Shown here: positions 1 to 19,748 of the stretch, piece after piece
Layout: each line of letters opens with the position of its first letter
How positions within the stretch are numbered: the first letter of the stretch is position 1
NCBI GenBank assembly: GCA_020027215.1
Contig: JAHRAO010000027.1
Span: forward strand, 1 to 55,007
Origin: Gammaproteobacteria bacterium
Lineage (GTDB): Bacteria; Pseudomonadota; Gammaproteobacteria; JABABF01; JAHRAO01
Length of the DNA stretch: 55,007 nucleotides
Direction of reading: 5' to 3'
The notes under the pieces: model-generated
What the model was told of the DNA's origin: nothing
Seen by the model: the letters and a program-made list of their open reading frames with translations, nothing else
Database searches by the model: none
Position numbers and translations under genes: made by a program

Positions 1-184
1 TCCTTTATCTTGGTGTATTATATCTGAAAAGAGCCCGTCCGCTATCTACAATCACGATATGTCACCTTGTCAACCACTCTTCATTATATCTGAAAAGAGC
101 CCGTCCGCTATCTACAATAAGTGAGATTGGATAATTCAGTTAACCATAATTATATCTGAAAAGAGCCCGTCCGCTATCTACAAT
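1..184. CRISPR. CRISPR array edge, type II-C-like repeats
   Basis: Three identical 36-bp repeats lie at 17-52, 83-118 and 149-184, separated by two unrelated 30-bp spacers (53-82 and 119-148). Bases 1-16 would be the end of a further spacer, so the array continues past the left edge. A 36/30 spacing is typical of type II arrays. Read on the minus strand the repeat begins ATTGTAG and ends ATATAAT, like type II-C repeats (GTTGTAG start, promoter-like -10 end, as in Neisseria). Read on the plus strand it also ends in a -10-like TACAAT, so the direction is unresolved. No cas gene is in the window. Other short interspersed repeats are less likely because spacing is exact and the spacers differ. 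Confidence 0.8.
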
Positions 185-208
185 TATCTACAATACAACA
201 TCTACAAT
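185..208. repeat. Degenerate CRISPR repeat tails
   Basis: Directly after the last full repeat, the repeat's final ten bases (TATCTACAAT) recur at 185-194, and nine of them (ATCTACAAT) recur at 200-208. This looks like debris from truncated repeats at the end of the array. The stop codon of the neighbouring lipoprotein gene (202-204, TAG on the minus strand) falls inside this debris. Confidence 0.55.
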
Positions 209-3200
209 GTGCGTTGTAAGGTGGCGTTATTTGTGCAACGAATAATCGGAATATCATTGGTGGTGCCAAAATCCCACACCCGATTAGTGTTAGCAATTTC
301 GTTATTGTCGATGACGTTATTGGCATTCGTATCACAGTATTGGGTATGTTTTTGTATTGTTTCCGACTCAACGCCGGCATCCCAATCAGTATAAGCCAGT
401 ATATCGTCGCCTGCACCGCCTTCTAAAGCAGCCATTTGGGTTAAAGTCCGGCTGGATGCAAGCACTTCTATCCCAGCAGTAATGGAACTATTGATAGCGT
501 TGTAATAATTGCGACCAGCCATCCCGGGTACTGCGTTAGCATCAGTATTCGCGCTAGTACTAACAAGAGGCCACCAATTTATGTAACCGATTAAACCGCC
601 AAATCCAACGTTTGTATTACCTGCTCCTCTTAATTCGCTTGCACTCCAAACGTTTTGTACCACCGGTATATTGGGTTTATTAGGAAAACGAATGTATACA
701 TAACCAATCAACCCGCCATAGCAGTAATTATCCGCATTGAACGGGCTTTCTACTATTCCCCCAGACCAGCTGTTGTATACGATTGGACTGTCAAATAATC
801 CCCATAAAATACCGATGAGACCGCCATAATTCCCACTATGATGCGCTTTGTTGCGCACATTTACCCGTGACCACGTATTAAGTACTACCCCTTTGTATGT
901 GCTTCCTATAAGACCGCCAACACTACTGACGTCAGTGCTATCGCTTAGAACTATGATTTCACCCATTGACCAGCTGTTGGAGATTTGGCTCTTCCACAAA
1001 TTACCAATAAGACCTCCAATATCACTAGGGCCGGGTAGGAGGGTACCGCCGCCGCCAACAATAACTGACGCGCTGACAGATGCATGACTAATAACAGAAT
1101 AAGTTGCGTTGCCGATCAGCCCGCCTACATAGTGATCAGTGCGGTCTGTACCTCCACGAATGGTCAACATGCTGGATGTAAAAGTAATAGTGGAATGATA
1201 GAGTTGGCCCACCAAGCCTCCAACATCACGCCCGTGCCCGTGTACTTCGATAGTTGCCGAAGATCCATCACCGATAAGAGTGATTTGCGTGAGGTGGGAT
1301 CTTGTCGCCCTCCCGGCCAGTGCAGATGTGTAATCCTCTCCACGTACTGTGGGATTTACTAGAGTCAAATTGCTAATGCTCGCTGATGATACGCTAGCAA
1401 ATAAGCCAACAGGTTTATCTGCGAATGGTGAATATTGAATCCGTAAATTGCTGATTTGATTATTTTTTCCATCAAATTTAGCTGAATAGGGAAACGTGTA
1501 TCCTTTCATCCTCCCCCATCCTATGGGTTTCCAGTGAGTAAAATTACTAAGATTCACATTATTAGTCAGTTCATACCCGCACAATTTTTGCTGCTGACAA
1601 TTGGCGGGGATAGTGTTGGATTGTCCAAGCCGATTGCTTGCATAACTATTACCAGATAAATCAAGACGCATGTTATTTATCTGTTGCGCATCGGTCAGTT
1701 CTATCATGCCGTTATTGTCGTCATCCACGTCCTGCGCGTCGGGAATTCCATCGTTATCAGCATCACCTGCTGCTACAACGAGGGCGATATTGATGGTAAA
1801 AGTAAGAGTGTTATTACCGATACTAGCGGTGAGAAACGCCTGTTGCTCGAGCGGGGTATCGCTGTGCGCCGTATAAGTAAATACAACTTGATGACCAAGA
1901 CCAATAGGGGTGCTCAGTGTAGCATTGCCAATTGTCGGTGCATCGATAATTGCCCAATGAACAGGTAGACCAGTTTTTTTGCGATCTATCGCCTGAAGGG
2001 TAATATACAATGTTGAATCTTGTGCCGCCACTACTTGATGGGTAGTGTTAATAGGCACAATCTGATTGAGTATTATGTAGTCATTGATTAAATTAATTGC
2101 GCGCACGGTGACAGTGATGGTTGCTGGTGCTGACTGCACTGCGCCATCGTTGGTGACAAAGACAAAGGTGTCCGCTCCACTATAACTGGCATGTGGGGTG
2201 TAAGTGACATTGGGAGCGGTGCCACTTAAAGAGCCGTTGCGTGGTGAGGTGGTGATGACATAAGAGAGCGCATCTCCATCAACATCATCGCCTGAAAGAG
2301 TAATATTCACCGCAGTATCTTCGTGAGTGCCTATCGCTGCACTATTTGCGGCGGGTGTATCGTTGGTAGCATCCACAGTGATAGTGATGGTTGCGGGCGC
2401 TGACTGCACTGTACCATCGTTGGTGACAAAGGCAAAGGCGTCTGCGCCGTTATAATTGGCATGTGGGGTGTAAGTGACATTGGGAGCGGTGCCACTTAAA
2501 GAACCGTTGCGTGGTGGGGTGGTAATGACATAAGAGAGCGCATCTCCATCAATATCACCGCCTGAAAGAGTAATATTCACCGCAGTATCTTCGTGAGTGC
2601 CTATCGCTACACTATTTGCGGTGGGTGCATTATTCACTGCAACTACTGTGATGGCAATGTGGACATTCAATGAATAACCTTTACCATTAGTTATGGTAAA
2701 GGTAACCGTATCCATACCAAATGCATGAGGATGAGCTACGAACAAAAGAGGAATTTTGCGGTTAACAACCGGACGAACGACGTCTTCCTCCACTACTGTT
2801 ATTCCCTCTCGGATCACGACTTGAGAGGAGCCTTGCGTCATAGTATAGGAGAGCGTGCCCGTAACATTATTTGCGATTGTAATCACATAATTACTGACGT
2901 TACCAGCATTAATAGTCGTCTCGGTGTTGAGGGTCTGCGTGGGGTTATTGTCGTTGCTTCTTAATGTTGCGCAGGAAGCACCCACATCATTAGCACTGCG
3001 CGTTAGTGTGTAGCCTGCATTACACTGACTACAATTTTCCATGTCGTGTCTATCAGACATCCCGCCCATAGGCACGCCGTTAGAGCATACATAAGGGTAT
3101 ACAGTTGTTGTTGGGATAGCGGATTGGGGAGTCGATCCTTGACTTTCTGTTCCACCGCAAGCTGTTATACCAAATACCAGCAATAAAAGTATCCATATAA

Positions 3201-3243
3201 TTCGAAATTGGGACGGAAAATAAATATTCACACGAAGCCTCAC
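202..3243 (-). CDS. Large surface lipoprotein with cadherin-like and GLUG repeats
   Basis: A 1013-residue exported protein. Residues 1-28 form a signal peptide with a long hydrophobic run ending in the lipobox ITAC, so Cys29 is the likely lipidation site. A short cysteine-bearing segment follows (CSQCNAGYTL, about 70). Residues about 205-381 hold two nearly identical 90-residue cadherin-like (tandem-95 type) repeats, each with HEDTAV and GTAPNVTYTPHA. Around 492-516 an Asp/Asn-rich stretch (DADNDGIPDAQD) resembles thrombospondin type 3 calcium-binding repeats. From about 620 to 930 come several GGLIG/GGLVG segments, the GLUG motif found in surface and adhesin-like proteins. Adhesion or surface attachment is an inference; no enzyme motif is visible. 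It is transcribed alone and ends inside CRISPR repeat debris. Confidence 0.85.
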   Translation of the reverse strand: MRLRVNIYFPSQFRIIWILLLLVFGITACGGTESQGSTPQSAIPTTTVYPYVCSNGVPMGGMSDRHDMENCSQCNAGYTLTRSANDVGASCATLRSNDNNPTQTLNTETTINAGNVSNYVITIANNVTGTLSYTMTQGSSQVVIREGITVVEEDVVRPVVNRKIPLLFVAHPHAFGMDTVTFTITNGKGYSLNVHIAITVVAVNNAPTANSVAIGTHEDTAVNITLSGGDIDGDALSYVITTPPRNGSLSGTAPNVTYTPHANYNGADAFAFVTNDGTVQSAPATITITVDATNDTPAANSAAIGTHEDTAVNITLSGDDVDGDALSYVITTSPRNGSLSGTAPNVTYTPHASYSGADTFVFVTNDGAVQSAPATITVTVRAINLINDYIILNQIVPINTTHQVVAAQDSTLYITLQAIDRKKTGLPVHWAIIDAPTIGNATLSTPIGLGHQVVFTYTAHSDTPLEQQAFLTASIGNNTLTFTINIALVVAAGDADNDGIPDAQDVDDDNNGMIELTDAQQINNMRLDLSGNSYASNRLGQSNTIPANCQQQKLCGYELTNNVNLSNFTHWKPIGWGRMKGYTFPYSAKFDGKNNQISNLRIQYSPFADKPVGLFASVSSASISNLTLVNPTVRGEDYTSALAGRATRSHLTQITLIGDGSSATIEVHGHGRDVGGLVGQLYHSTITFTSSMLTIRGGTDRTDHYVGGLIGNATYSVISHASVSASVIVGGGGTLLPGPSDIGGLIGNLWKSQISNSWSMGEIIVLSDSTDVSSVGGLIGSTYKGVVLNTWSRVNVRNKAHHSGNYGGLIGILWGLFDSPIVYNSWSGGIVESPFNADNYCYGGLIGYVYIRFPNKPNIPVVQNVWSASELRGAGNTNVGFGGLIGYINWWPLVSTSANTDANAVPGMAGRNYYNAINSSITAGIEVLASSRTLTQMAALEGGAGDDILAYTDWDAGVESETIQKHTQYCDTNANNVIDNNEIANTNRVWDFGTTNDIPIIRCTNNATLQRTL
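2101..2640 (-). repeat. 270-bp tandem repeat inside the lipoprotein gene
   Basis: Two consecutive copies of a 270-bp unit (about 2101-2370 and 2371-2640) encode the two 90-residue cadherin-like domains. The copies match closely at the DNA level, with scattered single-base differences and no length change, which points to recent duplication or gene conversion. The period was measured from the matched GATGGTTGC blocks at 2116 and 2386. Confidence 0.85.
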
Positions 3244-5558: not shown

Positions 5559-7121
5559 ATGTCATTACATTTTTTAGATATTGTCGTTTTGTCTATTTAT
5601 GTGATCAGTTTAATTACCGTTGCTTATTTAGTATCGCGTGAACGTCCTGGTCATACTAAAAATACCGAAGATTACTTTTTAGCCAGTAAATCTTTGCCGT
5701 GGTGGGCAGTCGGAGCATCATTGATTGCTTCTAACATTTCTGCCGAACAAATTATTGGTATGGCTGGGTCTGGCTATGTCGTTGGACTTGCCATTGCTTC
5801 ATACGAATGGATGGCTGCATTAGCGCTCTTAATTGTCGGAAAATACTTTCTGCCTATTTTTCTCCGTCACAAAATTTATACGATGCCGCAATTCTTAGAA
5901 CAACGCTACGACTATCGCGTCAAAATGGTTATGGCTATCTTCTGGCTCGGCGTGTATATTTTTGTCAATTTGACTTCCATTCTATGGCTCGGCGCCCTCG
6001 CTATCAGAACGATCACTGGAATAGATTTGGTATACGGCATGCTTTTGCTTGGCGGTTTTTCTCTTGCTTATTCGCTCTATGGTGGGTTAAAGGCGGTGGC
6101 AATGACCGACATTATTCAAGTTGCCGTATTATTCGTTGGCGGGATCATTTTGAGTGTCGTTGTGTTATTTAATCTTGCCGATAATGGAGGCATTCTTGCT
6201 GGAATTTCTACGCTAATGGAACGCGCCCCAGAAAAATTTGACCTCATTCTTTCGCCAAATCATCCAGAGTACATTAACCTACCAGGCATTTCTGTCATTA
6301 TCGGTGGAATATGGATTATGAATTTATCTTACTGGGGTTGTAATCAATATATCATTCAGCGAACTTTAGCGGCGGGAAGCCTGCGTGAAGGGCAAAAAGG
6401 AATTATTTTTGCTGCTTATCTCAAAATAATAATGCCGATTATCGTTGTTCTTCCTGGTATAGCTGCCGCCATAATCTCTCCTGGTTTAGAGCGCTCTGAC
6501 GAAGCTTATCCTACTATGATGCAGCATATGCCGATAGGCATTAAAGGTTTAGTTTTCGCTGCTTTGGTTGCGGCAATTGTGTCGTCTCTCAGTTCGATGA
6601 TGAACAGTATTTCTACTATCTTCACTATGGATTTATATGTGCGTTACCGTCCTAATCAAAAAGAAACACATTATGTAACAGTTGGACGACTGGTGAGCTT
6701 GACGTGCTTAGTTATAGCGATGCTTTGCGCGCGTCCGCTATTGGGTCACTTCGATCAAGCATTCCAATACATTCAGGAATTCACTGGCTTTTTTACCCCC
6801 GGCATTGTCTCGTTATTCCTTTTGGGGTTATTTTGGAAAAAAACAAATGCAAACGGTGCGCTATCAGCAGCAATAGCATCGGCTTTTCTATCGCCTGTCT
6901 TTAAGATTTTATTCCCCGCACTGCCTTTTATTGAACGCGTTGGATGGGTTTTTGTTTTGTGTATGGCCATAGGTATGTTGGTATCGCATTGGACTCATAG
7001 GGAAGAAGGATCTAAAGCTGTTGAGCTAGACGATATTCAATTTACCACCGATAAAACATATAATATTGGAGCGGTCGGTGTGGTGCTTATTTTGTACGCG
7101 ATTTATCTCGCTTGGCAATAA
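5559..7121 (+). CDS. Sodium/solute symporter (SSF family)
   Basis: A 520-residue secondary transporter of the sodium:solute symporter family, close in pattern to the SGLT-type sugar transporters. About 13-14 hydrophobic segments run through it. Family features visible are DYFLASKSLPWWAVG and SNISAEQIIGMAGSGY near the N-terminus, and SSLSSMMNSISTIFTMDLY in the middle, the conserved region around the Na+ site. The substrate cannot be read from sequence. I chose the ATG at 5559 rather than the upstream in-frame GTG at 5535, because a strong GGGGGGAG Shine-Dalgarno ends three bases before it. A TATAAT at 5515-5520 could be its -10 box, but no good -35 precedes it. Confidence 0.88.
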   Translation: MSLHFLDIVVLSIYVISLITVAYLVSRERPGHTKNTEDYFLASKSLPWWAVGASLIASNISAEQIIGMAGSGYVVGLAIASYEWMAALALLIVGKYFLPIFLRHKIYTMPQFLEQRYDYRVKMVMAIFWLGVYIFVNLTSILWLGALAIRTITGIDLVYGMLLLGGFSLAYSLYGGLKAVAMTDIIQVAVLFVGGIILSVVVLFNLADNGGILAGISTLMERAPEKFDLILSPNHPEYINLPGISVIIGGIWIMNLSYWGCNQYIIQRTLAAGSLREGQKGIIFAAYLKIIMPIIVVLPGIAAAIISPGLERSDEAYPTMMQHMPIGIKGLVFAALVAAIVSSLSSMMNSISTIFTMDLYVRYRPNQKETHYVTVGRLVSLTCLVIAMLCARPLLGHFDQAFQYIQEFTGFFTPGIVSLFLLGLFWKKTNANGALSAAIASAFLSPVFKILFPALPFIERVGWVFVLCMAIGMLVSHWTHREEGSKAVELDDIQFTTDKTYNIGAVGVVLILYAIYLAWQ

Positions 7122-19205: not shown

Positions 19206-19748
19206 TTAGGCAGAAAAACTCATTTGGTTTTTGCGTTGATAAAAATAAGCCAAAATGAGACCGGCAATAAGACTAGTCACCAAAACATCCAATATTTCAA
19301 TGATAATAAAGTCAGCGGAAAAACTAAACCAATTCCACCGTGCGATATGAACGCTTAATGCACTGAAACCGCTCACTGCCGTCACTAAACATACCGCCCG
19401 AAAATAGCTTAAATGCGAAGTGCAACAGAGCATCAACCAGAGTACGCCAGCCACTACACAGCGCATAATCAGATCAATAGTTAAATTGAGATTTAGATTA
19501 GAGGTGTGTTGGTGAACCACATTGATAAAAGCGGCAAACCGATGGGAAGTCGATTCGTTATCCATTTCTCGCGGCAAATAATACACACCATCATTAGGTG
19601 CATTTTGTGCCAATATTTGTGCAACTTGATCTTCATCAGTCAATTGATGAATTGTCACATTGTGCCACGGCAGGACAACCCAAGAAATAAACCCCCAAAT
19701 AAAGAGTGCGACTCCACAGACGATTATAGGTATAATGTGCTGTTTCAT
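19206..19748 (-). CDS. Unknown inner-membrane protein
   Basis: A 180-residue protein of uncertain function. An N-terminal hydrophobic anchor (about 7-28) is followed by a polar region of some 65 residues with LTDEDQVAQIL and GVYYLPRE. Three further hydrophobic segments follow (about 92-112, 117-137 and 145-168). The polar part would face the periplasm. It ends 37 bases before the DMT transporter gene and is probably the first gene of the thi operon, which is the only hint of context. Confidence 0.6.
   Translation of the reverse strand: MKQHIIPIIVCGVALFIWGFISWVVLPWHNVTIHQLTDEDQVAQILAQNAPNDGVYYLPREMDNESTSHRFAAFINVVHQHTSNLNLNLTIDLIMRCVVAGVLWLMLCCTSHLSYFRAVCLVTAVSGFSALSVHIARWNWFSFSADFIIIEILDVLVTSLIAGLILAYFYQRKNQMSFSA

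What the first reader, a model, noticed from the sequence alone, without database searches (positions are those of the whole stretch)
1..184. Edge of a type II-C-like CRISPR array with an uncommon repeat
Three identical 36-bp repeats with two exact 30-bp spacers are seen directly. The minus-strand repeat starts ATTGTAG and ends ATATAAT, which would place a consensus -10 box at the end of each repeat. In Neisseria type II-C, every repeat carries its own promoter this way. If true here, each spacer would be separately transcribed. The opposite strand also ends in a -10-like TACAAT.
Basis: partly seen in the sequence, partly recalled or inferred. Interest (0 to 1): 0.6.

Follow-up and report, generated by a model that had tools for sequence, protein, structure and literature searches.

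The report
Type II-C (Cas9) CRISPR array end
The window's edge holds the far end of an ordinary Cas9-type (II-C) bacterial immune array, whose guide RNAs are probably each started by a small promoter inside the repeat, as in Neisseria and Campylobacter; its Cas9 gene and helper RNA lie on another piece of the same fragmented genome.

Summary
Confirmed: three identical 36-bp repeats (17-52, 83-118, 149-184) with two 30-bp spacers and 16 bases of a third sit at the very start of contig C6. A fourth copy ends contig C46, so the array probably spans that assembly gap; no other copy was found in the genome. On C46 the array follows the C-terminal part of a type II cas2. Contig C35 ends inside cas9 (first 300 residues), preceded by a divergent tracrRNA candidate with anti-repeat and strong terminator. 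A -10-like TAnnnT ends that strand's repeat in 31 of 45 surveyed systems, against 3 of 45 on the other strand. A promoter in every repeat is therefore plausible, but no -35 or extended -10 is present, and the flanking gene could read straight into the array. The rest of cas9, cas1 and the start of cas2 were not found in the 97%-complete assembly: a broken locus, a strain mixture or a gap. No spacer target was found. Ordinary: a new member of a known kind.

The parts
1..16 (-). PAM-distal part of a spacer, cut by the contig start
   Evidence: Contig C6 begins at window base 1; same register as the other spacers
17..52 (-). CRISPR repeat, crRNA sense on minus strand (ATTGTAGATAGCGGACGGGCTCTTTTCAGATATAAT); -10-like TATAAT at 22-17
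   Evidence: strand from repeat:anti-repeat pairing
53..82 (-). 30-bp spacer (crRNA strand GAAGAGTGGTTGACAAGGTGACATATCGTG)
   Evidence: no match in phage, plasmid or IMG/VR collections
83..118 (-). CRISPR repeat, identical; -10-like TATAAT at 88-83
119..148 (-). 30-bp spacer (crRNA strand TATGGTTAACTGAATTATCCAATCTCACTT)
   Evidence: no match
149..184 (-). CRISPR repeat, identical, outermost on this side; -10-like TATAAT at 154-149
185..208 (-). Two further partial copies of the repeat's first 9 bases (ATTGTAGAT, plus-strand 186-194 and 200-208): decayed end of the array
   Evidence: Read directly from the sequence
202..3243 (-). Flanking gene (1013 aa, lipoprotein-like signal, Ig/cadherin-like and GLUG domains); its stop codon lies 17 bp from the array on the crRNA strand, so read-through could also transcribe the array
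   Evidence: (no terminator-like site in 1-300)

Best explanation
This is the cas-distal end of a type II-C CRISPR array of a gammaproteobacterium with a 1.53-Mb draft genome. The array is read from the window's minus strand towards cas2. Each crRNA would start a few bases into its spacer from the -10-like TATAAT that closes the repeat before it, and would carry the spacer plus the next repeat. That repeat pairs with a tracrRNA made divergently from cas9, and the pair guides Cas9 to matching DNA. Shown by sequence: array, cas9 N-terminus, tracrRNA candidate, anti-repeat pairing and strand, and intact operons in relatives. Inferred: transcription from each repeat, and interference. Not shown: that this genome still has a whole cas9 and cas1; its cas2 on C46 is 5'-truncated, so spacer acquisition may be lost.
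For: Identical repeats in regular spacing. Fourth copy plus a 30-bp spacer at the end of C46, 21 bp after a cas2 C-terminal remnant (TIGR01573 48.6 bits, cut-off 24.5; best PADLOC model Cas2_II). Cas9 N-terminus on C35 (TIGR01865 145 bits, cut-off 100) with D18 and the arginine-rich helix. Anti-repeat 13701-13734 of L007 and terminator GGCACCTCCTGCGGGGGGTGCC-TTTTTTT on the minus strand; the candidate folds with z -5.5. Relatives: cas9 (1227-1284 aa), cas1, cas2 and arrays with 36-bp repeats, mostly at 66-bp spacing; Cas1 fits the type II model cas1_NMENI at 285.7 bits. Repeat:anti-repeat duplexes favour the same strand in all four cases, -42.7 to -50.3 against -35.6 to -41.0 kcal/mol. TAnnnT at the crRNA-strand 3' end in 31 of 45 repeats against 3 of 45 on the other strand; shuffles gave mean 0.9, maximum 5. 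Published precedent: C. jejuni crRNAs start in each spacer from a -10 box in the repeat (PMC3656092).
Against: No Cas1 and no Cas9 remainder in the assembly; the query had no positive control, and the RuvC_III family search was silent in its controls too. cas2 lacks about its first 37 residues. No -35 or TGn on the crRNA strand. No protospacer. The 45 repeats are related, so the counts are not independent.
Confidence: 0.85

Rival explanations
1. The array is transcribed as one long pre-crRNA by read-through from the flanking minus-strand gene at 202-3243 and is then processed by tracrRNA and RNase III; the TATAAT is incidental.
For: The gene ends 17 bp before the array in the crRNA direction, and no terminator-like site was found in 1-300. 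The 3' half of the repeat is almost fully complementary to the tracrRNA candidate, which processing would use.
Against: The TAnnnT end recurs across many II-C repeats. In the three relatives examined no gene ends directly at the array edge in the same way. Precedent favours repeat promoters (PMC3656092).
Confidence: 0.25
2. The locus is a relic: a rearrangement removed most of cas9, cas1 and the start of cas2, and the array is an orphan without interference.
For: Cas9 remainder and Cas1 not found. cas2 is cut inside contig C46 exactly where a 138-bp stretch shared with contig C7 (98.6%) ends, with a short shared TTAA at the joint.
Against: The repeats are identical and the spacers regular, with no decay inside the array. 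The Cas9 reading frame is open up to the contig end. Assembly gaps, strain mixture or a chimeric join on C46 would look the same.
Confidence: 0.45
3. The plus strand is the crRNA strand or is also transcribed: each repeat carries CTGAAA-17-TACAAT on the plus strand.
For: The consensus scan finds this pair in all three repeats, 9 of 12 matches. The two close relatives share TACAAT on this strand.
Against: Anti-repeat differences are mostly G>A or T>C, which keep pairing only if the minus strand is the crRNA. Deeper relatives have CACAAC there. The terminator lies on the strand that makes minus-strand crRNA pair.
Confidence: 0.08

Closest known systems
Type II-C CRISPR-Cas of Neisseria meningitidis / Campylobacter jejuni (individual promoters in repeats)
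   Same: 36-bp repeat ending in a -10-like hexamer, 30-bp spacers, cas9-cas1-cas2 without csn2 or cas4 in relatives, tracrRNA with anti-repeat
   Different: -10 only, without the extended -10 reported for C. jejuni (GGTAAAAT, PMC3656092); relatives' Cas9 is 1227-1284 aa against about 1083 aa for the nearest solved Cas9 chains; own cas locus incomplete in the assembly
Bordetella pseudohinzii type II-C locus (PMC4624362)
   Same: tracrRNA divergent from and upstream of cas9; array after cas2; mostly 30-nt spacers
   Different: Different organism; own locus split over three contigs
Loci of MAGs JAPYNQ010000004 (G042), JAJDYQ010000063 (G182) and JAJFKY010000022 (OFTM396)
   Same: Cas9 N-terminus 46-55% identical; repeats of the same build and orientation
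   Different: Their cas genes are intact; in G182 the best tracrRNA candidate lies between cas2 and the array

Membership tests
Type II CRISPR-Cas | cas9 in the genome | tested here: met
   TIGR01865 at 145 bits (cut-off 100), first 300 residues only, cut by the contig end
Type II CRISPR-Cas | Array of identical repeats with unique spacers of similar length | tested here: met
Type II CRISPR-Cas | tracrRNA with anti-repeat and terminator | tested here: met
   Prediction only: anti-repeat, terminator, seven aligned candidates; expression not testable
Type II CRISPR-Cas | cas1 and cas2 (adaptation genes) | tested here: inconclusive
   cas2 C-terminal fragment; Cas1 not found although the family search rang in 9 of 14 controls; assembly incomplete
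Subtype II-C | Operon of cas9, cas1, cas2 only (no csn2, no cas4) | tested here: inconclusive
   Met by reading ORFs in three relatives; not decidable in this genome because the locus is broken over contigs
Subtype II-C with repeat promoters (Neisseria/Campylobacter kind) | -10 box at the 3' end of the repeat on the crRNA strand | tested here: met
   TATAAT, strand set by anti-repeat pairing
Subtype II-C with repeat promoters (Neisseria/Campylobacter kind) | Transcription start inside each spacer | not testable with these tools
   No RNA data

The most novel reading that the evidence does not exclude
In this small clade (this genome, G042, G182) the repeat has gained a second -10-like end on the opposite strand, so each repeat could fire outward in both directions, making antisense RNA over the spacers as well as crRNAs.
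Probability: 0.07. Interest if true: 0.5.

Novelty: new member of a known kind. Interest (0 to 1): 0.22.

Why it matters
It documents a type II-C system in an unnamed gammaproteobacterial lineage with a small draft genome. It also adds comparative support, over 45 related repeats, that the -10-like end of II-C repeats lies on the crRNA strand well beyond Neisseria and Campylobacter. The clade's Cas9 is large for II-C and distant from the solved structures. None of this changes the known picture.

Tried and rejected
Spacer targets: blastn against phages and plasmids gave only weak chance-level matches; exact 20-mers and the repeat core gave nothing in IMG/VR. Cas9 remainder, Cas1 and cas2 N-terminus in the own genome: nothing beyond the known cas2 fragment; the RuvC_III family search was uninformative, its controls being silent. 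Contig-end overlaps: none for C35, C46 or C6 (the far ends of C43 and C45 were not fetched). Synteny of the C7 gene in other genomes gave no useful neighbour. Rfam found no family above its gathering score at the tracrRNA candidate. The paper by Zhang et al. 2013 on Neisseria is not held; its content is taken from citing papers. The hypothesis of scattered non-CRISPR repeats was rejected.

Full report
OBSERVATION. The window is contig C6 of a 46-contig, 1.53-Mb draft genome estimated 97% complete. Its first 184 bases hold three identical 36-bp repeats at exact 66-bp spacing, hence 30-bp spacers, and 16 bases of a further spacer. None is expected by chance. A fourth identical copy lies at C46:19825-19860, followed by a 30-bp spacer and the first 6 bases of another repeat, where that contig ends. 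Orientation and content agree with one array that runs from C46 into C6. That the two are joined is inferred; no overlap was seen.

CAS GENES. On C46 the repeat is 21 bp from the stop codon of a cas2 fragment (77 codons read; TIGR01573 48.6 bits against a cut-off of 24.5; best PADLOC model Cas2_II). C35 ends inside cas9 after 300 residues (TIGR01865 145 bits against 100). Cas1 was not found although that search rang in nine control genomes. The Cas9 remainder was not found with a query from the relative whose N-terminus is 55% identical, but that search had no positive control. The cas2 N-terminus is missing.

THE cas2 JOINT. The cas2 fragment starts where a 138-bp stretch shared with the end of contig C7 stops (98.6% identical; two copies in the genome). 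In C46 that stretch lies upstream of htpG, in C7 upstream of a fadJ-like gene. It reads naturally as the shared upstream region of two divergent genes, with cas2 joined in one version. A real rearrangement, a strain mixture or a chimeric join would all give this picture; I cannot separate them.

tracrRNA AND STRAND. Between pckA and cas9, L007:13701-13734 resembles the repeat. On the minus strand it is followed by a hairpin and a strong terminator, and the region folds better than all 200 shuffles (z -5.5). G042 has the same arrangement upstream of cas9; in G182 the best candidate lies between cas2 and the array, preceded by TTGACA-17-TATAAT read by eye. In the own genome I read TTGCAT-17-TATAAT upstream of the candidate by eye; the consensus scan does not list it. 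Differences between repeat and anti-repeat are mostly G>A or T>C, which keep pairing through G-U only if the crRNA is the strand beginning ATTGTAG. Duplex energies agree in all four cases. Seven aligned candidates share a GCAGG-like stretch that can pair with the anti-repeat's CCUGC, a short hairpin with some compensatory changes, and the terminator.

RELATIVES. Class-wide and GTDB searches found whole loci in other Gammaproteobacteria MAGs: cas9 (1227-1284 aa), cas1 (type II model), cas2 and array, with no csn2 or cas4 seen among the ORFs. Hence subtype II-C. The genome itself is unnamed; only its class follows, from its stated kinship with G042 and G182.

PROMOTER IN THE REPEAT. In 45 systems with 36-nt repeats, written antisense to cas9, the last six bases fit TAnnnT in 31 and match TATAAT at 5 or more positions in 18. 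On the other strand 3 and 3 do, and these are this genome and its two closest relatives. Letter shuffles gave a mean of 0.9 (maximum 5) and 0.2. The systems are related and their strand was assigned by the cas9 direction, which duplex energies support in most but not all loci, so this is support, not proof. C. jejuni (PMC3656092) and Flavobacterium (PMC10309648) use or are thought to use such promoters. Against it here: no -35 and no extended -10 on the crRNA strand, whereas the plus strand scores 9 of 12. Moreover a gene ends 17 bp upstream of the array in the crRNA direction without a terminator-like site, so read-through is a real alternative.

TARGETS. No spacer matched phages, plasmids or IMG/VR.

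VERDICT. Whether the system is whole in this organism is open.

Noticed in passing
L005 (C46) 19442-19579 and L196 (C7) 5873-6010: 138-bp stretch in two copies, 98.6% identical, ending exactly where cas2 is cut; possible rearrangement point or strain variant.
   Followed up: partly
L194 (C44) 1-200 and the ends of many contigs (e.g. L142, L134, L164, L183, L193): A repeated sequence with internal tandem-like copies recurs near many contig ends of this genome and probably causes several assembly breaks.
   Followed up: no
L007 13620-13738 (minus) and alignment A2: The tracrRNA tail carries a GCAGG-like stretch (GCAG in the own genome), which mimics the crRNA repeat and can pair with the anti-repeat's CCUGC in the seven candidates: a possible self-paired form.
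   Followed up: partly
L029 9346-9379: Second anti-repeat-like copy at the annotated start of cas9 in G182, besides the tracrRNA candidate between cas2 and the array.
   Followed up: no
L030 2721-3106: G042 has a second array with a different repeat (GTTGTCTTAGCACCGCTTATTCCCATGTGTTAAACT) on a contig that also has a 220-residue open frame matching the Cas9 N-terminus.
   Followed up: no
window 202-3243: Large surface-type protein with Ig/cadherin-like and GLUG domains; its C-terminal coding end is about 74% alike to the end of contig C32 (L182).
   Followed up: partly
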